From: Physocladia obscura
Lineage: Eukaryota; Chytridiomycota; Chytridiomycetes; Chytridiales; Chytriomycetaceae
Length of the DNA stretch: 24,781 bases
NCBI GenBank assembly: GCA_027596945.1
Contig: JADGJH010000146.1
Span: 3,250 to 28,030 of the forward strand
Reading direction: 5' to 3'
The notes below the pieces were generated by a model. That model was not told where the DNA came from. It saw only the letters and a list, made by a program, of their open reading frames with translations, and searched no databases. Shown here one piece after another: positions 128-21,755 of this stretch; within the stretch, counting starts at the first letter, position 1; each line of letters begins with the position of its first letter. The translations under genes were made by a program, and so were the position numbers.

Positions 128-949
128 ATGATGAATGGTGAATCAGTGGTCAATCAGTCACAACGTACCAAACACACAGCAATCCTTTTCCAGCATTCTA
201 GTGTTAAATGCTATTGTGACAACAATGACGGCTCTCAAAAGATTCGTGCTACGGATGATATTCGCGCCGGAAGTGTTTTACTAATCGAGCACGTAGTATT
301 TGGAAATGCAAAGTTCATTCGGCGCGTACTAAAAGTGGATTCTGCATTCTCTGTCCAGCTGCACCCGCGTAGTGCAATAAGTGAATCGGAACATAGGGGC
401 GATTTTTCGGACATTGACGCGAAAATTGAAGCAAATGCATTCTTTGGTGCGGATGGAACGCTGAGATTGGGTCCAGCCGCCACGCGATTCAATCACAGTT
501 GCACACCAAACTGTATCGTGCGATATGCATACGAACACTCACCATTTGCGTTCCGCGATGGCGAGCGACGTGACGGGTTTGCAACAATATACTCAGTTAG
601 TGATATTAAACCAGGCGACGAAATCTGCTATCAATACAATATTCATGCTCACGATATGTTTGCATGTTCATGTTCTGCCTCTGACCCGGCTGATCGTGCA
701 AAAACGTTGTTGCATAATGAGCGTATTGTTGGGCCCCCGATTGTGGAAAGAAATCGCACGTTTCTCGAACACACAATTGCTGATTATCTCAATACGCGTG
801 AAGCTACTTGCGCGTACTGTAGTTCGTCTCCTGTTAAAAATTTATGCAAAGGATGCGAAGCGGTTTCGTTTTGCAATACTAAGTGCCTTCAAGCTGACTG
901 GTCTGCACATAAAATTGTGTGTAAACGCGATTTCTTGGCTTTGCCCTGA
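128..949 (+). CDS. SET domain protein with C-terminal MYND zinc finger
   Basis: Single-exon gene of 273 residues, probably a SET-family protein lysine methyltransferase that uses S-adenosylmethionine; histone or non-histone substrate unknown. Visible: SET N-terminal strand region about 39-58, the catalytic/SAM-pocket motif RFNHSCTPNC at 120-129, and the second signature IKPGDEICYQYN at 160-171. A short CSC post-SET-like cysteine cluster follows (C180, C182). At the C-terminus is a complete MYND finger with ligands C228, C231, C240, C243, C249, C253, H261 and C265. In animal SMYD proteins the MYND is inserted inside the SET domain; here it follows SET, an order seen in some fungal SET proteins. 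Start: the first of two adjacent ATGs (codons 1-2), right after T-rich DNA. The region around the NHSC motif is free of stops, so no intron is needed. The MYND probably mediates binding to proline-rich partners (family knowledge). Confidence 0.85.
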   Translation: MMNGESVVNQSQRTKHTAILFQHSSVKCYCDNNDGSQKIRATDDIRAGSVLLIEHVVFGNAKFIRRVLKVDSAFSVQLHPRSAISESEHRGDFSDIDAKIEANAFFGADGTLRLGPAATRFNHSCTPNCIVRYAYEHSPFAFRDGERRDGFATIYSVSDIKPGDEICYQYNIHAHDMFACSCSASDPADRAKTLLHNERIVGPPIVERNRTFLEHTIADYLNTREATCAYCSSSPVKNLCKGCEAVSFCNTKCLQADWSAHKIVCKRDFLALP

Positions 950-3085: not shown

Positions 3086-6000
3086 TTAATAAACCGCATC
3101 CACATTAACAATGCTATTGAATGCAGGATACATGTTAATCATAACGATAACTCTTAGCAAGTCTTTGCCCAACACACCACCGGCAACACCAGCACTACCG
3201 GCCGCAATATTCAACAACACGCCAGGAACAACCAGTCTTAAAACCACTGCAGTATTCTTCTCAACAATCGAAACACTCATTGCGCTTCCGTAATCAACAT
3301 GGATCGGAACTTGTCTCCGCTCATCAAATAGAACAATTCCAAACACAGCAGGTATTTCATCGTCACCGCCCCCATCATTAATAATTCTTACCACAACATT
3401 ATATTCTGTAGCAATCCAACCCCCACTCTTAACAATAACCTCTTTAACCGTCCACCCGCGCGCCACGCGTCCTATAAAACTCTCCTCCCCTTCATTTTCC
3501 TCATAAATGCGTCCACGCACAGCGCCAACAGAAACAATCCGTCCCCGACTGCTACACATGTTTGTTTGAATCGCTCCAATAAGACTACTAATGCTGTCAC
3601 CGCACCACGAGCTCCAACTCATCCAGCTTTGCGTTTTTTTGCTACCGCTACTGGTGCTATTTTTCACAACGTTTCCAAAAGACTGCGACCCCGTATCAAA
3701 TACGGCTGAAACTGTGAATCCTGTCATGGGAATTGGAGGGCCACCTGTGATCAGGCTGAACTGGCTCGACAGACTGAATGCCGTTCCTCCTCCGCCGCCG
3801 CCAGTGTGGATTGTGAGTACACCGGTTGCTAAGGTAGGCATTGTTGGGTCCAGTGAAATTATCGATCCGTCTTGGTTTAAGAGGCCTGCTGCAATCCAGA
3901 CCACGTATTGAATCACGCTGTTTTTGCTGTTTTGGTTTTTCGCTTGACGAAGGTTGACCAGCGGTGTGATTCGGTGGATCACAGAGATGAGAAGGTTGAC
4001 ACTGTCGAATCCGATTTGATTCAAGCTTATCCAAGATGGCGGGTATGATGGCTTAAGGTTATAAAAATGGAGTACTTTTGCTGCAGCTACAGTTAAATTA
4101 CTGTCGCCACTCACATCGTTCGGTATCGGAATAATACTTTGCGGGAAAACTCCCGTGTCACCATCATCATTCGCAGCCGTCATGAAAGAAAAAACCCGCT
4201 TCGTAGAAGCCATACTATTATCAAACATTGTCACTGTCAAGTTGTACCTCGTCGCACTCTCCAAAAACGGCACCCGGTCGTGTTTGACGAGAATAGATCC
4301 GCTTGTGGATAGATACTCGATCGTGAGCGACTCTCCGATCGGTGGCGACAAGTCCGCGGTTGCTCGCAGAATATGAGCCGCACGCGTTTTGTTGTCGGTG
4401 ACAATTAGGAGACGGATGTGGAAGTCTCCGATTATGGGGAACGCGTCGGGGATTTCGTGTGATATTTTACCACCGGGGTGGATATAGTAGAGGTTTCGCC
4501 CGTCCGCGATGATATCAGTAGTGGCGGTGGTATTACTGGTGATTTTGTCGTTATTGATACAGCGGGTGTCGGATTTGGCAGTTTTTTTGTCTACACAGTA
4601 GCGGTACGGGATCGAAATTATTCGGCCATCTTCGGATCCGAATATAACTGATGTGTGGCCTAATGCCGGAGAAGCGTTGATTTCACGGTGATCAAGATCC
4701 TTTTTTATGGAAACAATTTGGTATGATGGGTATTTATCATGTGAGTTCAAAACAAAAACACTCCACCTCAGTAGTATCAAAAGCCCAAATCAAAAGTCCA
4801 GATTCCGGCTCCAAAGCATAAACCATTCCATTTGAAGCACCAAAATACAGGGCATCTAGGGCAAGAGCAGGCGACGTGCGGATCGGATAATTTACTCTGA
4901 ATCGCCAGACGGATTTTCCAGTAACTGAATTCAGTGCATAAAAGACTCCGTCTTGAGACCCGAAATAAATTCGTCGACGCGCTGCATCTACAGCCACCCC
5001 GCCATAAATTGAATCTCCTGCAGAAAACGTCCAAACTGGAAATAAAATATAAAAATTAAAGTCAAATCAATTTGAGCTGAGAGGGTACTCAAACGCGTCT
5101 GCCCATTCGTATGATTGACGCCTCTCATAATCCCATTCCACGCACCAACAAAAACCATTGTTAAATCCGCATCGACTGCCGGTCCGCTCGAAATCGAATT
5201 CATTTCTTCATGGAACCAAATACACTTTCCATTTCGATCGAGCTTGAAATACTTGCCGTTCATGGCAGTTCCAATCACACTTCCAGATCGTGTCACCGCC
5301 GGCCCGCTCCATATCGTACCGTATGGTAACGGACCAGGATAGAAGCTGTAAGCTTCTGTGCCGTTCGCGTGCACGCTGTAGAGCCGGTAGTCGTCGTTTC
5401 CGACGTAGATGCGTGTATCGTCTTTATTGACGGTCGAGATTGTAACTTGGCCTTCGAACCATGTTGATGTGCCACCAACAGCTGAGATTATGCCGGCATT
5501 CTTATTGTTGTTATTGTTGTTGGTGTTTACGATGGCGGCGGGAAGGGCATTAGTATTGCTGCTTGTACTGCTGCCGGCGCCGGTGCCGCCACCGCCGCAT
5601 GTGAGACCCAAGTGTTGGTCGGGAGAGTCTTGGCGGTGGTGGGCGGCGAATGTCCAGGAAATCTGGCCGGTTGCGATGGACGCGTTATAAATGTGGCCGT
5701 CTCCACTGGCGAAAATCACATTTGTTTTGTGCAGGGATGCTGCTGAGTCTATGATTTCATCAGTAGTAATGTGCCAAATTGGACGACCTGTTTTTTCGTC
5801 AAGTGCTATAGGTGGGTAGAAATTTTATTTGTTTATATGCAAGTTGATCAAAAAAAATTTTTTTTACCATAAAATTTCCTGTCAGCAGACCCAATAAGAA
5901 CACGTCCATCTGCAGATATCGCCGGAACAGAAAAAATACCACGTCCAGTCTGAAACGACCAGTAATAAGAACCATCTGCTGTGCCGCCAGAGCCAGAGAG

Positions 6001-6621
6001 CTTACTGACAGTACGTACAGCGACAAACCCTGTGTTTTCGCAGTTCGCACGGAACGACGGCCATGGATGCACATCCGGCGGAAAATCAGCATTTAGGTCA
6101 TTGACTACAGATGGCACAACTGTTGAACTAAACAAAGCATGAAACTGTTTCTGCGCCCATTTTTGAATAGATAACACTGTTTCTAATACAGTTGGGATAA
6201 AGCTCTGATGGTACTGGGTTAATATTGCTGCTTTTGTTATTGTGAGAGGCTGTTGTTTTTGTGGTAGAGTTGGTTTGATTCCACTGACAATGCCGCTGGT
6301 ATAGATGGCCAGGAGGATAACGGCAACACTAGCAAGACCACCGCCCAAATTTCCATCAAAAATCGAGTACATTGAAATAAAAGACTTGCTGCTGCTTTTT
6401 ATGTGTCGCGATTGGTGTTGATGGTGATGGTGGTGATGGCGAGTTTTCCTGTTACTGTTGCTTCTTGAACGAACACCACGCGTTGAAATGGTGCTTGATA
6501 AATTAGACACGGCTGGTGCGCGATTTGTTCTTGGCTCGATGTTGCTAATTTGCGCTGGTGGCGCTGGTTCAGTAGCACCCTTCTCAATGCTGGCCCTTTT
6601 GCGGCTGCTGCGTGTTTCCAT
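3086..6621 (-). CDS. Single-pass membrane protein with PQQ-type beta-propeller
   Basis: Four exons: 6621-5868, 5805-5089, 5035-4767 and 4699-3086; introns of 62, 53 and 67 bp, all GT-AG and phase-consistent. They encode about 1,117 residues. Residues 1-90 are basic with a His run (62-67), followed by a probable membrane helix at about 93-115, so a type II topology with a lumenal or extracellular C-terminus is likely. From about 195 on come PQQ/quinoprotein-like propeller blades: an entry motif PWPSFRAN, then repeated W-x-F / SPAL / VYFGSxDGxxYAL elements such as RRRIYFGSQDGVFYALN and NASPALGHTSVIFGSEDG. The first three splice joins each fall inside a blade and restore its consensus, which supports the model. 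A Gly/Asn-rich loop interrupts one blade. Residues beyond about 620 (Ig/cadherin-like or unknown) have no assigned function. PQQ binding or enzymatic activity is not shown; eukaryotic members are often structural or sensor proteins. The third acceptor (AAAAAAG) is weak. Confidence 0.8.
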
Positions 6622-6718
6622 TGATTGTTACCCTTCAAAAAAAATAATAAGCATCATTGTTTTAACACAATGAAAAGAAACGAAAGAGAAAAAAAGCGAC
6701 TAATTTTATTGATATTCA

Positions 6719-7410: not shown

Positions 7411-8218
7411 ATGGGCTCGTACACTTTAGGCGTCCAGGACCAGCCGCCGCCGATGCCGCAGACAATCGCCTACACTCGCTACTTTCCGCGGCGTGGCCCA
7501 TCCGGCGCTGTTGTTTTCCTTGGCGTTTTTGCCACCATGGGCGTGGGTTTCTACTACGTTGGTCTGAACAATGCTGAGCGAAGGTAACACTACATAACTT
7601 GTTTCTTTAATCCAACGACCCATCGACTTACACAAACAATTAACCCATCAACTTACCAACCCATCAATCTCATCACAACTTATCAAGAGAAATCCGTCGC
7701 GAAAAAGCTTGGACCCGCATCTCCCTCGTCCCACTGCTTCAGGCCGAAACCGACCGCGACGTCGTGCGTCGTCTTGCCTCCGCCCGTGCCAAAGAGTCTT
7801 CCATTATGCAAGGTTGTGGATCCTTCTGTTTTTCTCCTCCCATTATTAACAATAATTCACAAATCACGACCAATGCGCGCAATGAACCAATCAACAAACC
7901 AATCAACGAACCAATCAACGAATCAATCAACGAATCAATCAACGAATCAATCAATTAATCAATTAATATATCCTTGCGCGTAATACAATAGAAAAGCATG
8001 ACTGGGCTGCCGTCGACTTGAAGGAGCCCGTTAAGGGAATTAAACGTTATGGCATTTACGATGAAACCCACCAACACGCCACTCCTGTCTACTATACCGA
8101 CCGTTATGTAGCCCCAACCTACCTGTTTGTCCCTCGAGAATCAGGCGAACTACTTCCAGCCCAATGGTGGCGTGGCTCAAAGTTTTTCACAATCAACCCA
8201 CCTTACCACAATCGGTAA
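7411..8218 (+). CDS. NDUFA13: NADH:ubiquinone oxidoreductase subunit NDUFA13 (GRIM-19)
   Basis: Accessory subunit of mitochondrial respiratory complex I, inner membrane. Exons 7411-7583, 7688-7812 and 7992-8218; introns 104 and 179 bp; 174 residues. Recognised by the N-terminal QDQPPPMPQTIAYTRYFPRR (human homologue: [21 protein letters not shown]), a single membrane helix at about 32-52, NNAERREIRREKAW, and the hallmark RISLVPLLQAETDRD (human: RIALLPLLQAETDRR). The third exon carries the conserved KHDW (human VPDWKVG) and a C-terminal tail about 30 residues longer than in human. No cleavable mitochondrial presequence is apparent, as usual for the family. Intron 2 holds a 12-bp minisatellite. 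The gene starts 26 bp from SMD2 on the opposite strand, so the two housekeeping genes may be co-expressed. Confidence 0.93.
7885..7968 (+). repeat. 12-bp minisatellite inside NDUFA13 intron 2
   Basis: Seven consecutive 12-bp units of the type AACCAATCAACG, drifting to AATCAATCAACG and AATCAATCAATT towards the 3' end. The array occupies about half of the 179-bp intron and ends 23 bp before the acceptor. Because 12 is a multiple of three and the unit lacks stops, spurious open frames appear on both strands across it. Confidence 0.9.
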
Positions 8219-8586: not shown

Positions 8587-10922
8587 ATGCAGATCGTTAA
8601 GTCTGATTCCCGACAGCGCCAGACTCTGGCTATTATTGCTATTACTGCATCCGTAGTAATCCGCAGCGCTTATGCTGCCGCAGCTCAGAGCGGTTGGCGT
8701 GTGCTCAGTAAGTGCTTTGCTTGTGTTTGAACCTTTTTCGGTATCTACTTAACACCACACCAAACTCTTGCATTATTCAGGCGGTGTAACAGGCTCATTT
8801 TGTGTCCACAATGCTTTACTTCCAAACAATACGTTAATGTGCATCGAACGGCCTCACACTTCTCCTGTAAATTGAAATTAGAAACACATCCATCAACTAA
8901 ACTTTCAAGCTTTCATCTAAATCACAATACTAAAACATTACAACAGTACTATTGGATCAATAACTATACTAACGGCGAAACGAGCACAATTATCACAATT
9001 GACACGGACGCTGGCACTATTTCATACGTCGTAAACCCTCTAAAATACAATGCATTTTGCGCAGGACATTCTCAGGCTGCAGATGGTGGGATTCATGTTA
9101 TTGGCGGTGACAGACAGAGCAGTAGTTATTTGTACGATCATAGTAATGCTACCAATTACTTGGATTATAGTATTGTTGATTCAGAGACTTTTCTGTTTAC
9201 TGGGATTGATCGCATCCGGAGTTATCATCTTCCGGAGACAGATGCGGATATTTTGGCGGGGAATGGGTGGGATGAGTCTTTGCAGATGTCGACAGACAGG
9301 TTTTTAAAGTTTTTTATTTTTTGTATGTGGGATAAATTCTTATAGTTGCCTGTTTTTGTTTTTTTTCCCTTGACAGATGGTATCCTACTGTTGTCACTTT
9401 AGGAGATGGAACGTGAGTGTTTCTGTACTTTTTCACGGTTTTTATAACTTCTTTTCTATGCTGATCACAGTCTGTTTATTGTTGGCGGAGATAATAAGAA
9501 TATCGACTTTGGGAATCTGTCTCAAACAATTAACCCGACATATGAATTTTACCCATCAAAATATGCCCCTGCTATTACCAGCTCGTTGTTGACTTGGGCT
9601 TTTCCTCATAACTTGTATCCAATTTGTAAGTTTTCTCTTGATTGTAACTAGTTTTCTTACTCTTCAATACAGCCTTTCTTCTTCCAAGTGGAAATTTATT
9701 CCTCATGGTTTCAAACAGAACTGTTATAATTGACCCTAATGTGGATCCTGGAACCACTGAAGCAAACACAGTCGTAATTGCTACTGTTCCAGTTCTTGAC
9801 CATGCGCCTTGGATTTACCCGTAAGTGAAGTCATAAAATAAAAAAACGTAAAAAACGGAATTTAATAAAAATTACTTAAACAGACACACACCAACATCGT
9901 TTATCCTTCCATTGAAAGAGAGTGAAGGATACTCGTTAACAATCATGATTTGCGGAGGAACCAAAAACTCCACATTCCAAGCTTCCAGTGACTGTATTGC
10001 AATTGACAACCCAGAGTACCCCGACGCAAATTACAGAATTGTGTCCAATATGCCTAGCGCACGTCTCATGCCCGACTCGGCTATTCTTCCAGACGGAACT
10101 ATTTTACTCACAAACGGAATCGGATGGGGCCAAGCCGGAGGAAACGCCGGACAATGCCAATACGGCGCTGCGCCAGTATTCACCACGGACCTATATCACC
10201 CCGACAACAATACATGGAGCTCTCTAGAACTCAGCACCGTCGCGCGCATGTATCACAGCGGCGCGATATTGCTTAAGGATGGTAGCGTCATCACGACCGG
10301 TAATGAAATGGCCAACTACCTTGATTTCTGGGGAACTCCAACAACAGAAGGCCCGCTCGACGCGTTCGCCGATTCCACGAAAGGCTTCAACTCTGCATGC
10401 TACCCCGTTGTTGAAGTCCCGTGCACATCGCCGTGGGAGCAGCGAATTGAGCAGTACACGCCAGCTTACCTAACAAGCGGAAATCCACGACCGATCGTGA
10501 AAGCTTTTGCCAGCGGAACGGTGTTGACGTACAACAGCACTGTTGCGGTACAGCTTGATTCCACCGGTGCGAGTGTGAAGCAGATTTCGTTGATTCGGTA
10601 CACGACAACGACGCACAGCACCAATACGGACCAGAGGCTGATTATTCCGATTTTGTTGTATGTGAACACGACTGTTGCGATTTTCAGGATCCCGCCAAAC
10701 AGCTCTGTAGCGCCACCGGGGAACTGGCATGTATTTGGGGTTAGTGGCGATGGGGTGCCGAGTATTGCGCAAACTGTGTTGTTTGGAAGTGGACCTGTGA
10801 CGAATGTTGCTGTTCCGACGGGTGGGAGTGGATCTACGGCAACCTCTTCGAGTTTGGAGGTTCGACGCGGTGGATTGGGGATGACTTTGTTTGGCGTTTT
10901 GGGTGTGGCGTTTTTGATCTAG
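8587..10922 (+). CDS. Glyoxal-oxidase-like copper radical oxidase (AA5), GPI-anchored
   Basis: Secreted or cell-surface enzyme expected to oxidise simple aldehydes or alcohols with release of H2O2. Seven exons: 8587-8707, 8781-8866, 8947-9299, 9377-9412 (36 nt), 9471-9625, 9673-9820 and 9884-10922; introns 47-80 bp, all phase-consistent; 645 residues. Residues 1-33 look like a signal peptide (hydrophobic core LAIIAITASVVI). The metalloradical-site residues can be placed by motif: C107 in NAFCAG (thioether partner), Y189 in RWYPT, Y423-H424 in ARMYHSGA and H544 in THSTNTDQR. Family signatures LPDGTILLTNGIGWGQAG and PPGNWHVFGV are also present. The C-terminus (GSSTATSSSLEV, then a hydrophobic tail ending FGVLGVAFLI) fits a GPI-attachment signal. 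ATG 8587 is chosen because it directly precedes the signal peptide. Fungal homologues supply peroxide during lignocellulose attack or act in wall and surface biology; substrate cannot be told here. Confidence 0.92.
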
Positions 10923-12108: not shown

Positions 12109-12715
12109 ACGAGCCATCGTCATTCAACAGGGGATGAGTATCATGCAGCTGGGCTATTTCAAGTTTGTGGCAATCGAGACTTTACTTACAACAATGTTAA
12201 CGACCGCATTTTTCCGTCAATCCATCATAACTGGCCGTGCCAATCCTTTGACAACTGCGTTTCGAACTTCCAGCTTCTTTTTGTTCATTTTCCTGATCGC
12301 GACTGAGCTATCCAGGGTGCGTCAGCTCGAAAATTGATTAACGTATTGAATGTGTTTGAAGCACTAACCACTACAAAGGACATGATTTTCTGCTATTTAC
12401 TCAAATATGAACAAAAAGCAACATATTCAAAACATGAAATTCGCACTTTTCGGTGTCATTTTAACGCCCATGGTTTGTATTGCTGGCACTGTTATCCAAA
12501 ATTCTTATTGGGTTGCGATCGGGGTTGGTATTTATAATACTGGGATTCAGTTGTACGCCTCTGGGGATATATCTTGGATCTCATCAGCTTGCGATTTTAT
12601 TTTCCAAGCCAGATTTCTTGTGTATGGCGTATGCAAGCAACACCTGCTTGTGCAAACTGATGATGAAATAGCTATGCGTGCTGTAGATAATATTAAAAAA
12701 ATTTCTTACCATTGA
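12109..12715 (+). pseudogene. Multi-pass membrane protein, gene fragment (copy 1)
   Basis: A putative exon from 12109 to about 12316 reads RAIVIQQGMSIMQLGYFKF through to FLFIFLIATELSR, with two hydrophobic segments. A donor-like GTGCGT follows. A second block in the frame of the ATG at 12407 reads MKFALFGVILTP, IQNSYWVAIGVGIYNTGIQ, SGDISWISSACDFIFQARF and ends LLVQTDDEIAMRAVDNIKK before a stop at 12713-12715. Acceptors are possible at 12378 (gives the wrong frame for the conserved block) or 12418 (right frame, phase 0). The protein is not recognised; about four membrane segments are likely. No convincing 5' start exon was found, so the gene is truncated or partly decayed. A second, broken copy of the same module lies just downstream. 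Confidence 0.4.
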
Positions 12716-12871
12716 TTTAAAAAAATTGGTTTGATTAGTCACAAAATTTATTTTAATATATGTAAAATTTTATTGCCCCATCTTTGAAGAATACTGGCAA
12801 AAAAGGGAAAATATGACTATATGGGCCGTCATTTATCCAAACGTAGATTCCAAACAGCAAAAAAAAATAAT

Positions 12872-13223
12872 ATGATTTACGCCATGTTTGGGATTATTTT
12901 AACTCCCTCTTTTTGTCTTGTTGATGGATTTATTCAAAACTCCTACTGGGCCTCTATTGGTGTTGGAATATACAACTCAGATATTCAGTCATTTTGTATA
13001 TTTTTTCTGGTGACATTTCGTGGATATCTAGTATCATTGATTTTATTCTCCAACTCTCATTCTTGATTTGAGGTACATTTTTCAATTTTTTTATATAGTT
13101 ATAATGATTATTATTTATTGAAGATTTTCTAAACTAATTATTCTCCATTGAACAGGAGGCCTCCGTCAACAAACTTTTCTTGTACAAAGTGGTAATGAAG
13201 TAGCCGCTCGTACGATGGTTTAA
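12872..13223 (+). pseudogene. Multi-pass membrane protein module, broken paralogue (copy 2)
   Basis: Reads MIYAMFGIILTP and IQNSYWASIGVGIYNSDIQ, aligning almost residue for residue with copy 1. The reading frame is then lost: the homologous SGDISWISSIIDFILQLSFL follows in a shifted frame (about 8 nt net insertion) and runs into TGA. After an intron-like GTACAT...GAACAG segment (about 13072-13156), which copy 1 lacks, the match resumes as RQQTFLVQSGNEVAARTMV and a stop. It therefore looks like an older tandem duplicate of copy 1, now a pseudogene. Confidence 0.45.
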
Positions 13224-16231: not shown

Positions 16232-19200
16232 TTATTCAATCTTACAAAACAAAGCACCCTTCTCATTCACACATGCAAACAAACTTCCTTGCACTGATAT
16301 TTCAGATCTCCATTCAGGAGCAATCCATGTGAAGCAATTACAATTGATGCCACAAAGCCACATATCTTTGATTGCAAGACAGTGAGTATCTGCTGTTGTC
16401 TTGGCATAAAACTTGTATTCAGACTCTTGTGGGGGGAAAGATTTTTCTGCTGATGAGTTTTTTAAAAGTGCACCAGTATGTGCATTCCAAATTTTTGCAG
16501 TATTATCCCAGGATCCAGAAATAAGATTGTTGCTTGCATTTACAGTAACTGCATACACATAATTAGTAAGATTTTCAAGATTTTGCACTATCCTAGTGGC
16601 CCTGTCCCAAATTTTAATTGATTCATCCCAAGAACCTGATGCAACAAATTGCATGTCTCTACTGATGGTAACTGCAGTTATGTAGCCACTGTGTCCCTCA
16701 AGTGTCATTTGTACTATACCAGTTTGCATATTCCAAATTTTTACTCTCTTGTCCCATGATCCAGACACTACAAACTGTCCATCAAAACTTATAGCAAGTG
16801 CAGACACTGGGCCACTATGACCCTCAAGTCTCTTATACAATTTTCCTGATTGTACATCCCAGATTATGACAGTAGTGTCCCATGACCCTGAAACTACAAA
16901 ATGGCCATCTGCACTGATTGTCACTGAATCCACTGCATGCCTGTGACCAATAAGTTTTTTAAGCAATTTTCCCATAGGTACATCCCAGATTATTACAGAG
17001 TGGTCCCAAGATCCAGAAACAATAAACTGGTTATCTGTACTGATAGCTATACAGTAAACTGCATTACTGTGGCCTTCCAATGTCTTTTCTACTGTGCCTG
17101 CCTGTACATTCCAGATTTTCAGTGTGTTATCTTTGGATCCAGACACAACAAGTTGCTCATTTGTACTGATGGCAACTACAGAAACTACATCATTGTGACC
17201 ATCAAGTGAGTTTTGTAAAGCTGCATTCTGTGTATCCCAAATTTTTACAGTCATATCATCAGATCCAGAAACAACAAATTGACCATCTCTACTAACAGCT
17301 ACTGAATAAACTATGCTGTAGTTAGCCTCTAATGTCATTTGTACAGCACCAGTCAGTACATCCCAAATTTTCACAGTCTTGTCCCATGAGCCAGATACAA
17401 CAAAACACCCATCTGCACTGATAGCAACAGTAGACACAGTATTGCTATGGCCAACAAGTGTATTTTGCACAGTACCAGTCTCCACATCCCAAATTTTCAC
17501 AGTTGTATCATCAGATCCAGACACAATAAACTGCTCATTGACACTGATTGCAACTGAGCATACAAAAGTACTGTGGCCCTCAAGTGTCTTTAGCACTTCT
17601 CCACTCTCCACATTCCAAATTTTCACAGTCTTGTCTGAAGATCCTGACACAACAAACCATTCATTAGCACTGATTGCAACTGAGCGCACATAGTCAGTAT
17701 GACCTGTAAGAGTTTTTTGCACAACACCAGTTTGTGCATCCCATATTCTTACAGTAGTATCTGCTGATCCAGACACAATAAATTGCCCACCTGGACTAAT
17801 TGCTACTGCACGTACTGCTTTACTATGTCCCTTAAGTGTCTTTTGCACTGCACCAGTCTGCACATCCCAGAGTTTCACAGTCCTATCTGAAGATCCAGAT
17901 GCAATAAACTGGCTATCTGCACTTATAGCAATTGCATATACTTCATCACTATGGCCTAGAAGTGTTTTTTGCACTGCACCAGTGTGCACATCCCAGATTT
18001 TTACAGTTTTATCCCAGGATCCAGACACAACAAACTGCCCATCAGTGCTGACAGCAACTGCAAATACTCTATCTTTGTGACTTTCAAGTGTATTGATGCA
18101 TATTGGCCATTGAGCTGCCTGTGGGGTGATTGCAGGAACTGGAATTTGTGGTGGCAGCAAGGGAAAATAGGTTTTATAAAAAAGTGATTCAGTTGGGGCC
18201 ATTAAGATGGCAGTGCAATATACTTGTAATGCACTGGCTTCAATTGGAATAAACCATTGCTGTAGCACACGCTTCACATCTTGGAGCATATGCTGGAAAA
18301 GACTTGACACAGAAATACCAGACAGAGATTTTTGCAGAGAAACAACTGAATGAACAATTTGGCCAGTTTTTCCAAGAAGACTCATGAGTTCAATCCAATG
18401 ATGGGCATTGTGGAAAAATAGAAAATCCAACAGGTCTTCTGGAAGAACTTTCAAATGGGCTTCTTGGATGTGCTTGTGAAAATATGCTGAAGCATACACA
18501 GCTGTAGAAGAAATATGGGATGAGACTTCATGAGCAAAGTCTTCAACTTCTTTGTGGAGCTTGTTAATTGGCAAATTGCACATATTGAAGTGGAGAAACT
18601 GGTTCAAGTAAGAAATAGTCCCGAGTGCCAGGCAAGTATGCCAAGTGGGTAAATGCACACCAAAATTAGTATCCAAACAGCGAGTAGAATCAGTCAGATA
18701 ATCAGCAATCGACTTATGAAATACACGCACAGTTTTTGTGTCTGTATCAAACAGGAGAAGAGCATCCAGCTTTTGAACTGAAGCTGTAACAACAACAAGA
18801 TCCAAGCTTATCAGGTCAGCAATGGCTTGAGTAGTTAGTGGTTCAAATACGCAAACAATGGTTGCCAAAACATGCAATAGGGATGAAGATTCAGCCTCTG
18901 AAAAAATGCGATTAAGCATAGAAGAAAATAAATGATCCAATCCAGAATTTCCAGCACCAGTGCTTAAAGTCGTGCTTTTGATCTCTTCAAGTGTGATACA
19001 GTCAGTAGCAGCAAGTTCAAGAATTTTGCATGCAACTACAAGCCACACAAATACCCCAGCAGAATTTTCAACAAGAATAGCAGGGCCTTGTTCAATTGCA
19101 ACATCCTCAGCTGAATGTGTTTGCAAAAAATGCTTGGAAAATATTAATGCATCTTCTTTGTTTTGGTCATTACTTGGTTCTAATGCAATAGTTGGCAGTG

Positions 19201-21755
19201 AAGAAAAGGCTTGAACAATATCTGGCTCCAGTCGAGAAGTAATAAAAAGTTTGATTTTTGGAGGTAAATCTTTGCAGTGTACAGAAAATATTTCCAGAAT
19301 TTCACGTCGCTCTCCAATCTTTCCACATTCATCAAGGGCATCAGCAATAATAACTACAGGAGAATATGTTGGATTTTTGGCAAAAAGCTTTTTAAGTGGA
19401 TTACTAATAAGCTCTTTGAAAATATCAGAAACAGGCTCTTGGAGAATCTTGGGATTGTTCTGATAAATAACCAGCACCAACTGTGAAAATTCATTTGACC
19501 ATTCACATAGCCCAAACACCATTGTGTTTATTAGTTGTTGTGGGTTGTTTCGAGCTTCATTGTCATGCTTGGCATAAAGAACAGCACCTAAAAGGTTGCG
19601 CTGGCGAAGTTTATCAGCAGTCAATGCAGACATGACTGACTTTCCAACACCAGGTCCGCCTTGTAGCCATAAAACACGATTTTCACTTGCTGCAGTTGTA
19701 GGGTCAAGAAAATCTAACACACTTTCTAGAAGCCAGCTCCTAGTACCACTCACATGACTATTAAGCAAGCGTGATGTCTCATGCCTCATATCTTCAGTCA
19801 GTGGGTTCAACCAGTTTGTCAAAGTTTTAACAGTATTAGAATCTAGTTGAATAGAAGAGGTTGAAGGTAGTGCAGAATATTTGGCCAACAAGTTGTGACA
19901 CTCAGTAACAGCTCTGGTAATAAAAATGTCACAATAATAGAAACAAAAAACAACAAATTAAGTTAATACCGATCAAGTTCTCTTGGATTATCCACCTTGA
20001 TTGCTTGTATTTTCATTATGGCTTTGACAGTTTCACGTATAGTTCTTTTTCTGGGGCTGAGACCATGACAATGAAATTCATCAGGAAGGTCATGTACAGA
20101 GAACTTATATGGCACCAATACTTCAATTGTGTGATCATAGCCATCATTTAAAAGCTTTTGTTCACCCAAAAAAATTGGCTGTATGGGATAAAGCTTCAGC
20201 TCCTGCAATTCCAATGAAATTTCCCACTATATTTTGCATGTCAATTAACCTTTTAAATAAAAATAAAATAAATAAAACTTTGTTTTACCTCCAGTAAAAG
20301 GTTGTCAGGATATTTGTGTGCATTTTTCATAGACTCCATGCCCTGGTTGGATAAAATTGGGACAAAAATTTTACTATTACTCAGACAAGTCAAAAATCCT
20401 TGCTCCCAAGGTTCAGCAAAGTTTAGGCAAAACACATCTAAAAATGGATGAACATCCAATCTTTTGTGGCTCAACAGCAAAACAAATATTTTTGCTGTAT
20501 CTGAATCAGCAGCAACTCGGTAACTGAAAAAATGATTTTAGTAAAAAAAAGCAAACACACAAGTATTTTTGTACCTAACAAACCAGTCATGAATAACACT
20601 ATTTGCATGACATACCCAATCATTAAGTAGCATTAGATACCATGGTTTTTGCAAATCTGAAAAGCATTAAATAAGTAGGACATAACTCACGCTATAGGCA
20701 ATTACCAAAAGCAGATTTGCTGGAGTTATCGCGAGGACTTGCCTGGAATTGCATGAAAGCGTTCGATTGTTTCGAAAATTCGACAAGCGGGGCATCAGAT
20801 GTGTTAGAAGTTGCGACTTTTTGGGCAATGTTCACCGTAAACTGGTAAAAGATTTATCACATTTTCAAGTACACAAAATAATACAAACCTGCCAATGTAC
20901 AACAACATATGTGGCTTTGAAAGCATCAAGTATATCTTCATCATCCAGGATGTGAAAGGTGATTCCATCCTCATTATAAGTCATGTGTTTAATTTCGAGG
21001 AAAGGGTTTCCAGCCTTTTTATGGACAGCGATCTTGAAGGTTTCAAGTGAACAATTACGGGATACTTTGACTTTGAAGAAATAGTCTTCTTTTCCTATTT
21101 CACGACTCAAAATTCTGAGAATAATGTCGTTGTTTTCTGTATAATAACGAATGACTGCTATGTAGAACAAAAAGAAATTCGTACCTGATAAATTCGATAC
21201 TTGTTGCCCTTTCAATGGTTCAACATTTCCGTTATTTAATTTCTCTGAACTGGGAGCTGGGGTCTCAGTCCGCGTGATTGGAGGACTGATTGGCTTTAAA
21301 TGATCCGGTTTCACAGCCTTTACAGCCGAGCGGGTAGCATGTGCCTGCAAAGACTGAGAAGATGTTGACGTGACATCAGTAGCTGTATGTTTTCTGCGAA
21401 TTTGCGAAATTCGGGATGTGGCGGCTGAAGCGAGTAAGGGTCGTTGTGACTGTTGTCAATACAGATTAGATCAAGAAAAACAGTAAACAAGCATTGAAAT
21501 TGTCAAGGAGGCTTGCACCTCGCGAGTAACGGCTTTGGCGCGGACAAATACACCAGCCTTTTGCGCACACGTGAAATATGTTATTCCGTCTTTGCTGCCG
21601 TTGTTGTTTCCTCGATCTAATTGGTCCAATTCAACGCCGATCCATTCGTCGTTTCCGTCGCCGAAGTGCGTTGCGCCAATAAAGCGCACAGTTCCACAAT
21701 CTTTTACACCTTTGCGGTTAACCGTCACGCGTTCGCCGACTTTGAGTTTGTTCAT
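16232..21755 (-). CDS. CAP-Gly / PB1-like / TIR / NACHT / WD40 STAND receptor
   Basis: Eight exons: 21755-21519, 21449-21185, 21136-20889, 20841-20706, 20656-20575, 20523-20289, 20226-19970, 19913-16232; introns 47-69 bp, GT-AG, phase-consistent; 1,713 residues. Order: CAP-Gly 1-79 (GTVRFIGATHFG, WIGVEL, GVFVR; the GKNDG groove motif is GNNNG); basic Ser-rich linker 80-167; PB1/ubiquitin-like 186-249 with acidic YNEDG and DDEDILDAF; linker; TIR about 318-487 (FVSYRVAAD, PFLDVFCL, EPWEQGFL, KIFVPILS, LLLEWE, PIFLGE); fungal NACHT linker (WLNPL, GTRSWLLE), Walker A GGPGVGKS 572-579, Walker B VVIIADALDEC 673-683, sensor FITSR; winged-helix FHKSIADYL about 885; 13 clear WD40 repeats about 1096-1639 plus a degenerate last blade. 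Three splice joins restore the TIR core, making TIR-NACHT-WD40 firm. Attachment of the CAP-Gly/PB1 part rests on splice phase and absence of a stop. Expected role: ligand-triggered oligomerising NLR-like sensor whose TIR may cleave NAD+ (inference). Confidence 0.75.
16457..18088 (-). repeat. Tandem WD40-coding repeats, 126-bp period, 13 units
   Basis: Thirteen consecutive units of 42 codons (the last two 41) within the final exon. Each contains a VVSGSWDKTVKIWD-type core, preceded in most units by a LEGHS-type dipeptide region. The core is nearly identical between units. Changes concentrate at the two or three residues after GHS, at the residue following the next Val, and at the position before D in SGSxD (W, S, A, D or K). 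With the C-terminal degenerate segment they would make 14 blades, that is two seven-bladed propellers. Confidence 0.9.

What the first reader, a model, noticed from the sequence alone, without database searches (positions are those of the whole stretch)
16232..21755. A cytoskeletal CAP-Gly module and a PB1-like module fused in front of a TIR-NACHT-WD40 immune-type receptor
Seen: eight exons with seven GT-AG introns whose phases all match (0,1,0,1,2,0,2), giving one 1,713-residue frame with CAP-Gly, PB1/ubiquitin-like, TIR, NACHT and WD40 modules in order. The TIR is rebuilt only by splicing: VS|YRVAAD, LLLE|WE and ELDR|AVTE cross junctions, so the splice model is well supported there. Known: CAP-Gly domains bind tubulin or EB C-termini, PB1 domains oligomerise, and TIR-NACHT-repeat proteins are signal-transducing STAND NTPases. 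Inference: a receptor tethered to, or monitoring, the microtubule system, with a TIR effector possibly acting on NAD+ (candidate glutamate E403 in LLLEWE). I know of no described CAP-Gly plus TIR-NACHT receptor.
Basis: partly seen in the sequence, partly recalled or inferred. Interest (0 to 1): 0.92.

Follow-up and report, generated by a model that had tools for sequence, protein, structure and literature searches.

The report
Microtubule-module immune receptor in chytrid fungus
A chytrid fungus carries a gene predicted to make one long immune-type receptor in which a module of the microtubule-binding kind and a likely PB1 docking module stand in front of the usual alarm, switch and sensor parts, which would tie the alarm to the cell's microtubule skeleton; related copies, several of them broken, lie elsewhere in its genome.

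Summary
Eight minus-strand exons join in one frame of 1,713 residues, intron phases 0,1,0,1,2,0,2. The genome is Physocladia obscura. CAP-Gly and NACHT-type domains are clear in Pfam; TIR is clear only by profile (best PDB match SARM1, E=2.6e-5); PB1 is moderate (family profile to Cdc24, E=0.0013; nothing from the window alone). GenBank splits the gene, but inside TIR, and its first half already joins CAP-Gly, PB1 and half of TIR. A paralogue, C916, keeps an open PB1-TIR-NACHT-WD40 frame with six introns in the same phases, though no CAP-Gly was seen there. Five of 11 CAP-Gly loci have a same-strand NACHT 0.85-2.1 kb downstream; three more end at contig ends. Another annotated protein carries CAP-Gly plus TIR. 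An alpha-tubulin ends in EEY, the classic CAP-Gly ligand, but the window CAP-Gly has GNNNG instead of GKNDG. Microtubule role and NADase activity are inferred. E401, not E403, aligns with the SARM1 glutamate. My searches found no published CAP-Gly receptor of this kind.

The parts
21519..21755 (-). Exon 1: start codon and CAP-Gly domain (residues 1-79; Pfam match residues 6-76)
   Evidence: CAP_GLY 69 bits, cut-off 26.5; PDB matches CLIPR-59 and dynactin E about 4e-12, Restin (CLIP-170) 1.9e-11; same residues in annotated protein P0013
21185..21449 (-). Exon 2: basic Ser/Thr/Pro-rich linker (residues 80-167; 12 K+R against 5 D+E)
   Evidence: Splicing; composition; similar linkers after CAP-Gly in C605 and C434
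20889..21136 (-). Exon 3: PB1-like domain (residues 168-250)
   Evidence: Profile A2 of five copies matches Cdc24 PB1 E=0.0013; no match from the window alone
20706..20841 (-). Exon 4: linker between PB1 and TIR (residues 251-296)
   Evidence: Flanking introns phase 0 and phase 1, also in the C916 model
20575..20656 (-). Exon 5: K[PS]W motif and first TIR strand HDWFVS (residues 296-323)
   Evidence: same motif and phase-2 end in C916; similar stretch read by eye in C433 and C863
20289..20523 (-). Exon 6: TIR core, ends with LLLE; E401 (20291-20289) is the candidate catalytic glutamate
   Evidence: Aligned with the SARM1 glutamate of WVHKE; invariant in 5 of 5
19970..20226 (-). Exon 7: second part of TIR, begins WEISLEL
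   Evidence: Acceptor before TG[GC]GAA found in 4 of 5 copies examined (not in C863)
16232..19913 (-). Exon 8: end of TIR, NACHT (residues 543-714), intermediate region, 13 WD40 repeats, C-terminus and stop
   Evidence: NPHP3_N 100.5 bits; Walker A GGPGVGKS 572-579, Walker B VVIIADALDE 673-682 and repeats

Best explanation
This is predicted to be a single gene for a fungal NLR-type receptor (TIR effector, NACHT switch, WD40 sensor) that carries a CAP-Gly module and a likely PB1 module at its front and would use them to sit on microtubule or EB tails and to self-assemble. Shown: the exons, the frame, the domain order, the repeated occurrence of CAP-Gly upstream of NACHT, and an alpha-tubulin ending in EEY in the same genome. 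Inferred: CAP-Gly and its basic linker hold the resting receptor at EEY/F-type tails; ligand binding to the WD40 propellers, or loss of the microtubule contact, opens the NACHT; NACHT and PB1 drive assembly; TIR domains come together and split NAD+ (E401), starving or killing the cell. A single transcript is strongly supported but not shown by RNA.
For: One open frame over eight exons. GenBank P0013 equals residues 1-401, so the depositors' prediction also crosses the CAP-Gly/PB1 to TIR border; P0001 starts at residue 472, so the public split falls inside TIR. C916: open 1,513-residue PB1-TIR-NACHT-WD40 frame, six intron phases the same; 47% identity over the aligned part. CAP-Gly 849-2,116 bases upstream of a same-strand NACHT in 5 of 11 CAP-Gly loci, 5 of 8 when loci cut by a contig end are set aside. 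P0012: one annotated protein with CAP_GLY (34.9 bits) and TIR_2 (30.4 bits), both above cut-off. CAP-Gly ends are CpG-normal, with no second such stretch at the TIR start in C146, C605, C863 and C581. TIR profile hits SARM1 first. Omega between copies: CAP-Gly 1 0.16 and 0.17, CAP-Gly 2 0.53, PB1 0.31. One alpha-tubulin ends EEEEAEEY.
Against: No RNA evidence. GenBank lists two genes. Other copies decay: stops inside the NACHT match of C605 and C581, and the C433 match breaks off at model position 94; C863 has a stop in its PB1 stretch. The C863 NACHT hit is below the Pfam cut-off. C916 shows no CAP-Gly, though its contig starts 854 bases before the PB1 exon, and I chose its splice sites with the window as guide. 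GKNDG is GNNNG in the window. PB1 fails Pfam and single-sequence search; its model has pLDDT 48. The window TIR is below the Pfam cut-off. No relative with CAP-Gly plus TIR or NACHT was listed from another species (capped candidate lists).
Confidence: 0.42

Rival explanations
1. Two neighbouring genes: a CAP-Gly/PB1 protein and a TIR-NACHT-WD40 receptor that were never joined, close to what the public annotation has.
For: GenBank has HK100_002034 and HK100_002033 as two proteins. CpG content steps sharply between exons 4 and 5, and in C605 too the step is near the PB1-TIR border.
Against: The GenBank border is inside TIR, not between PB1 and TIR. Introns 3 and 4 between PB1 and TIR and intron 5 at the start of TIR are 47, 49 and 51 bases, little room for a promoter. 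PB1-to-TIR phases 0,1,2 are kept in C916. In C863 the CpG step comes before PB1 and in C581 before TIR. P0012 joins CAP-Gly and TIR in one annotated protein.
Confidence: 0.08
2. CAP-Gly is not a microtubule tether but a ubiquitin or adaptor-binding module, as in CYLD, feeding ubiquitin signals to the receptor.
For: CYLD CAP-Gly domains bind ubiquitin in immune receptor signalling (PMC8511506, abstract); CYLD chains appear among the window CAP-Gly matches, though last (E 2.7e-4 to 4.2e-4); GNNNG replaces GKNDG; ubiquitin-like stretches lie beside CAP-Gly in P0012 (below cut-off).
Against: Best matches are CAP-Glys of CLIPR-59, dynactin and CLIP-170, with E-values about 10^7 times lower than CYLD (their microtubule binding is recalled); a basic Ser/Thr/Pro linker follows.
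Confidence: 0.2
3. CAP-Gly and PB1 are integrated decoys: bait copies of cytoskeletal proteins attacked by parasites, whose modification trips the receptor, without any role in microtubule binding.
For: CAP-Gly lies upstream of receptors with different ends, WD40 in C146 and C863 and ankyrin-like (by eye) in C460; plant TIR-type proteins with an N-terminal PB1 have been proposed as integrated domains (PMC9786959, passages).
Against: Nothing here identifies an attacker; a tether and a decoy predict the same sequence.
Confidence: 0.2
4. A decaying pseudogene caught early: the frame is still open by luck and the gene is silent.
For: Exons 5-8 are CpG-depleted (22 CpG against 794 TpG/CpA) and several copies are broken.
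Against: 1,713 codons and seven introns intact; candidate catalytic and Walker motifs kept; 5' end CpG-normal.
Confidence: 0.1

Closest known systems
Fungal NLRs (NACHT or NB-ARC with WD40, ANK or TPR repeats), e.g. Podospora HET-E/HET-D (recalled, and PMC4986451, PMC9815663, PMC10197012 passages)
   Same: N-terminal effector, central NACHT with DALDE Walker B, WD40 repeats
   Different: TIR instead of HET; CAP-Gly and PB1 in front; repeats on average 50% alike, maximum 67%
TIR-bearing NLRs of Chytridiomycota (mentioned in PMC9815663, one passage)
   Same: TIR with an NLR in a chytrid
   Different: No CAP-Gly or PB1 is mentioned in that paper's main text (0 occurrences)
TIR-type plant proteins with integrated PB1 (AsTIR19, AsTIR57 of Arachis, PMC9786959, passages)
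   Same: N-terminal PB1 with a TIR and a nucleotide-binding domain
   Different: Plant NB-ARC; no CAP-Gly or WD40 in the passages seen
SARM1 NAD+ hydrolase
   Same: Closest solved TIR by profile; aligned glutamate
   Different: ARM-SAM-TIR (recalled), no NACHT, no CAP-Gly
CLIP-170 / dynactin p150 CAP-Gly proteins
   Same: CAP-Gly plus basic Ser/Pro-rich flank (flank recalled for them); tandem CAP-Gly in copies C605 and C434
   Different: No receptor part; CLIP-170 acts on the TIR adaptor TIRAP only in trans (PMC8297548, passages)

Membership tests
Fungal NLR / STAND receptor | NACHT-type NTPase with Walker A and B | tested here: met
   NPHP3_N 100.5 bits over cut-off 24.8; NACHT PF05729 22.7, below its 26.7; GGPGVGKS and VVIIADALDE
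Fungal NLR / STAND receptor | C-terminal repeat sensor | tested here: met
   13 WD40 repeats; WD40 over cut-off for the one repeat given to the scan
Fungal NLR / STAND receptor | ligand-driven oligomerisation and cell response | not testable with these tools
   needs biochemistry or genetics
TIR NADase | TIR fold | tested here: met
   profile to SARM1 E=2.6e-5; but the window sequence alone scores 18.5 bits, below the Pfam cut-off 28; no structure model made
TIR NADase | catalytic glutamate | tested here: met
   E401 aligned with SARM1 WVHKE glutamate, invariant 5 of 5; its catalytic role in SARM1 is recalled
TIR NADase | NAD+ cleavage | not testable with these tools
   no assay
CAP-Gly domain | sequence profile | tested here: met
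   69 bits, cut-off 26.5
CAP-Gly domain | GKNDG motif of the EEY/F groove | tested here: not met
   GNNNG in the window; GNNDG in the second CAP-Gly of C605 and C434
CAP-Gly domain | EEY/F ligand present in the organism | tested here: met
   one of five Tubulin_C hits, alpha-type by my reading, ends EEEEAEEY; an EB1-type frame on C1189 ends ADAEIF by eye, the one on C248 runs off its contig
PB1 domain | sequence profile over curated cut-off | tested here: not met
   no match in the window; C916 14.5 bits, cut-off 23.6
PB1 domain | relation to solved PB1 domains | tested here: inconclusive
   family profile: 8 of 9 hits PB1-type, best E=0.0013; window alone 0 hits; model pLDDT 48
HET-E type NLR with near-identical repeats | repeats nearly identical to each other (threshold of about 85% recalled) | tested here: not met
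   mean 50%, maximum 67%, ungapped

The most novel reading that the evidence does not exclude
A family of microtubule-guard immune receptors: CAP-Gly-bearing NLRs that read the tails of tubulin or EB proteins and fire a TIR NADase when the cytoskeleton of the fungal cell is attacked.
Probability: 0.3. Interest if true: 0.92.

Novelty: new variant of a known kind. Interest (0 to 1): 0.74.

Why it matters
Integrated domains can show what a receptor watches. A CAP-Gly on a TIR-NACHT receptor would make the microtubule system a guarded target in an early-branching fungus; an earlier survey found no NLR hits in chytrids (PMC4986451, passage). Repeated occurrence in one genome makes it a family that can be tested: CAP-Gly against EEY peptides, TIR against NAD+, localisation in a chytrid. 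It also shows that a public gene model split such a gene and so hid the architecture from domain surveys.

Tried and rejected
Single-sequence AlphaFold2 of exon 3: pLDDT 48, not used. Single-sequence PDB searches for PB1: window 0 hits, C916 one unrelated hit. Intron 6 acceptor that starts exon 7 at 20202 (my first model): replaced by 20226 because it keeps WEISLELQ, whose start is shared by other copies. E403 as catalytic residue: rejected for E401. The second structure job was not used: I judged that the sequences allowed there would add no PB1 diversity. Fold searches were not run. Pseudogene and two-gene readings are kept as rivals with low weight.

The chance figure (P about 1e-11 for 5 of 11) treats paralogous loci as independent and is not a real probability. 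TIR between CAP-Gly and NACHT was found by search in C146, C605 and C863, read by eye in C581, and not detected in C460. C311 as TBCE-like and C380 as housekeeping are my reading of translations, not scans. C288 has two CAP-Gly hits, one below the cut-off, and no NACHT downstream. The C916 model begins at an arbitrary in-frame point, not at a start codon.
Full report
Observation. With exon 7 starting at 20226 it gives 1,713 residues, one final stop, seven GT-AG introns and phases 0,1,0,1,2,0,2. In a scan of residues 1-1129, CAP_GLY (6-76), NPHP3_N (543-714) and WD40 are over their Pfam cut-offs; TIR_2 is not. The TIR, aligned with four relatives, finds SARM1 first among solved structures, E=2.6e-5, with the SARM1 glutamate of WVHKE opposite E401. 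Exon 3 has no Pfam match, but the profile of five copies gives nine PDB hits at E up to 10: Cdc24 five times (E=0.0013 to 0.0083), NBR1 twice (0.15, 0.89), PKC-iota (1) and SPC42 (0.79); that the Cdc24, NBR1 and PKC-iota chains are PB1 domains is recalled.

Origin and public annotation. The window is part of contig C146 of a 21.76 Mb assembly, Physocladia obscura by its protein records. The public record has two proteins here: P0013 (HK100_002034, 403 aa) equals model residues 1-401 plus VN, and P0001 (HK100_002033, 1,242 aa) equals residues 472-1713. The intron 6 sequence holds an earlier AG followed by GTT AAT TGA, which would explain the ending VN.

Paralogues. C916 gives an open frame of 1,513 residues from before PB1 to the WD40 end; introns 2-7 of the window have counterparts in the same phases. 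I chose its splice sites with the window as guide and its first residue is arbitrary; the open frame is the check. Identity is 47% over the part aligned. No CAP-Gly was found in C916; its contig begins 854 bases before the PB1 exon. The acceptor of intron 6, before TG[GC]GAA, is found in 4 of 5 copies examined (C146, C916, C433, C605; not C863). By eye, C433 and C863 keep the exon 5 stretch, with a GC instead of GT donor in C433 and a stop in C863. C605 and C434 carry two CAP-Glys, a basic Ser/Pro linker and PB1-like exons; C434 changes frame between its two CAP-Glys and runs into a contig end soon after PB1. Several copies are broken: stops inside the NACHT match of C605 and C581, a match cut short in C433, a stop in the C863 PB1 stretch. 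C460 has CAP-Gly, NACHT and ankyrin-like repeats (repeats by eye). P0012, an annotated 422-residue protein on a 2,296-base contig, has CAP_GLY and TIR_2 over their cut-offs; the genome search gave no identical match, so its contig seems absent from G000.

Association. There are 14 CAP-Gly hits, 13 over cut-off, on 11 contigs and 27 NPHP3_N hits. Five of 11 CAP-Gly loci (C146, C605, C863, C581, C460) have a same-strand NACHT 849-2,116 bases downstream, the C863 one below the Pfam cut-off; three (C434, C511, C1006) lie 258-1,168 bases from the contig end; three (C288, C380, C311) have none. The loci are related, so this shows a lasting association, not independent events.

CpG. Exons 1-4 have 54 CpG against 125 TpG/CpA, exons 5-8 have 22 against 794. 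In C605, C863 and C581 the CAP-Gly end is a CpG-normal stretch with depleted sequence on both sides; in the window the upstream side is intermediate, and in C460 the stretch lies at a contig end. The step falls near the PB1-TIR border in the window and C605, before PB1 in C863 and before TIR in C581. C916 is not depleted in its first 3.2 kb and C434 not at all. One reading is an unmethylated 5' end of a single transcription unit; methylation was not measured.

Mechanism. Shown: parts and order. From papers: CAP-Gly grooves bind EEY/F tails, with GKNDG at the groove (PMC9062740, passages); TIR domains can be NADases (PMC10197012, passages). Genome test: one of five tubulin hits, alpha-type by my reading, ends EGEEEEAEEY, so a ligand exists; an EB1-type frame on C1189 ends ADAEIF by eye, an aromatic end but not EEY/F, and the one on C248 runs off its contig. 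The window motif is GNNNG, which lacks the lysine. Inference: tethering at microtubules, PB1 and NACHT assembly, TIR NAD+ cleavage.

Selection. Simple Nei-Gojobori omegas between copies: CAP-Gly 1 C605/C434 0.16, C605/C863 0.17; CAP-Gly 2 C605/C434 0.53; PB1 C605/C434 0.31. The stretches are short and the window's own copy was not in these pairs.

Other species. Searches (residues 1-620; C605 N-terminal; three-sequence profile) listed TIR-NACHT-WD40 relatives in Entophlyctis (P0002) and Siphonaria (P0003, a record marked UNVERIFIED_CONTAM) without CAP-Gly in their annotated models, and CAP-Gly hits elsewhere that are dynactin, CLIP, kinesin or unnamed proteins. The annotated models may be truncated, as in Physocladia. 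No CAP-Gly protein with TIR or NACHT outside Physocladia was listed; these searches need shared 5-residue words and scored 7,990, 3,996 and 7,992 candidates.

Literature. The library holds open-licence papers only. Searches returned 1, 1, 6 and 1 papers for CAP-Gly or PB1 with NACHT, NLR or TIR terms, none on a CAP-Gly NLR by title and abstract start; some searches returned 2, 42 and 40, of which 2, 15 and 10 were listed, again none. The paper with CAP-Gly, NACHT and TIR is a proteomics study (listing only). TIR in chytrid NLRs is mentioned in PMC9815663 (passage). PB1 beside TIR is known in Arachis (PMC9786959, passages).

Verdict. The fused architecture is real with about 0.9 confidence as a gene model; the whole mechanism 0.42. 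It is a new variant of a known kind, the NLR, with front modules that I found described nowhere in the searches named.

Noticed in passing
window 20226-20289 and GenBank HK100_002034 / HK100_002033: The public annotation splits the gene inside the TIR domain; the second protein starts at an internal methionine.
   Followed up: yes
window 16232-20656: Exons 5-8 are strongly CpG-depleted while the CAP-Gly end is not; similar islands in C605, C863 and C581. Suggests DNA methylation that spares the 5' end.
   Followed up: partly
P0012 (HK100_009114), own contig: Separate annotated protein with CAP-Gly and TIR and weak ubiquitin-like matches between.
   Followed up: partly
L039 (C460): CAP-Gly upstream of a NACHT gene with ankyrin-like rather than WD40 repeats, by eye.
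   Followed up: partly
L054, L055, L056 (C27, C24, C22): Other TIR-NACHT loci have different RA/ubiquitin-like stretches before TIR, by eye.
   Followed up: no
window 128-949 +: SET and MYND domain gene.
   Followed up: no
window 4991-6627 -: PQQ/ACSF4-type beta-propeller gene pieces.
   Followed up: no
window 9852-10922 +: Galactose-oxidase-like gene end.
   Followed up: no
window 7880-7963: Twelve-base tandem repeat, seven copies.
   Followed up: no
window 12386-13066 +: Two similar short open frames in tandem, hydrophobic by eye.
   Followed up: no
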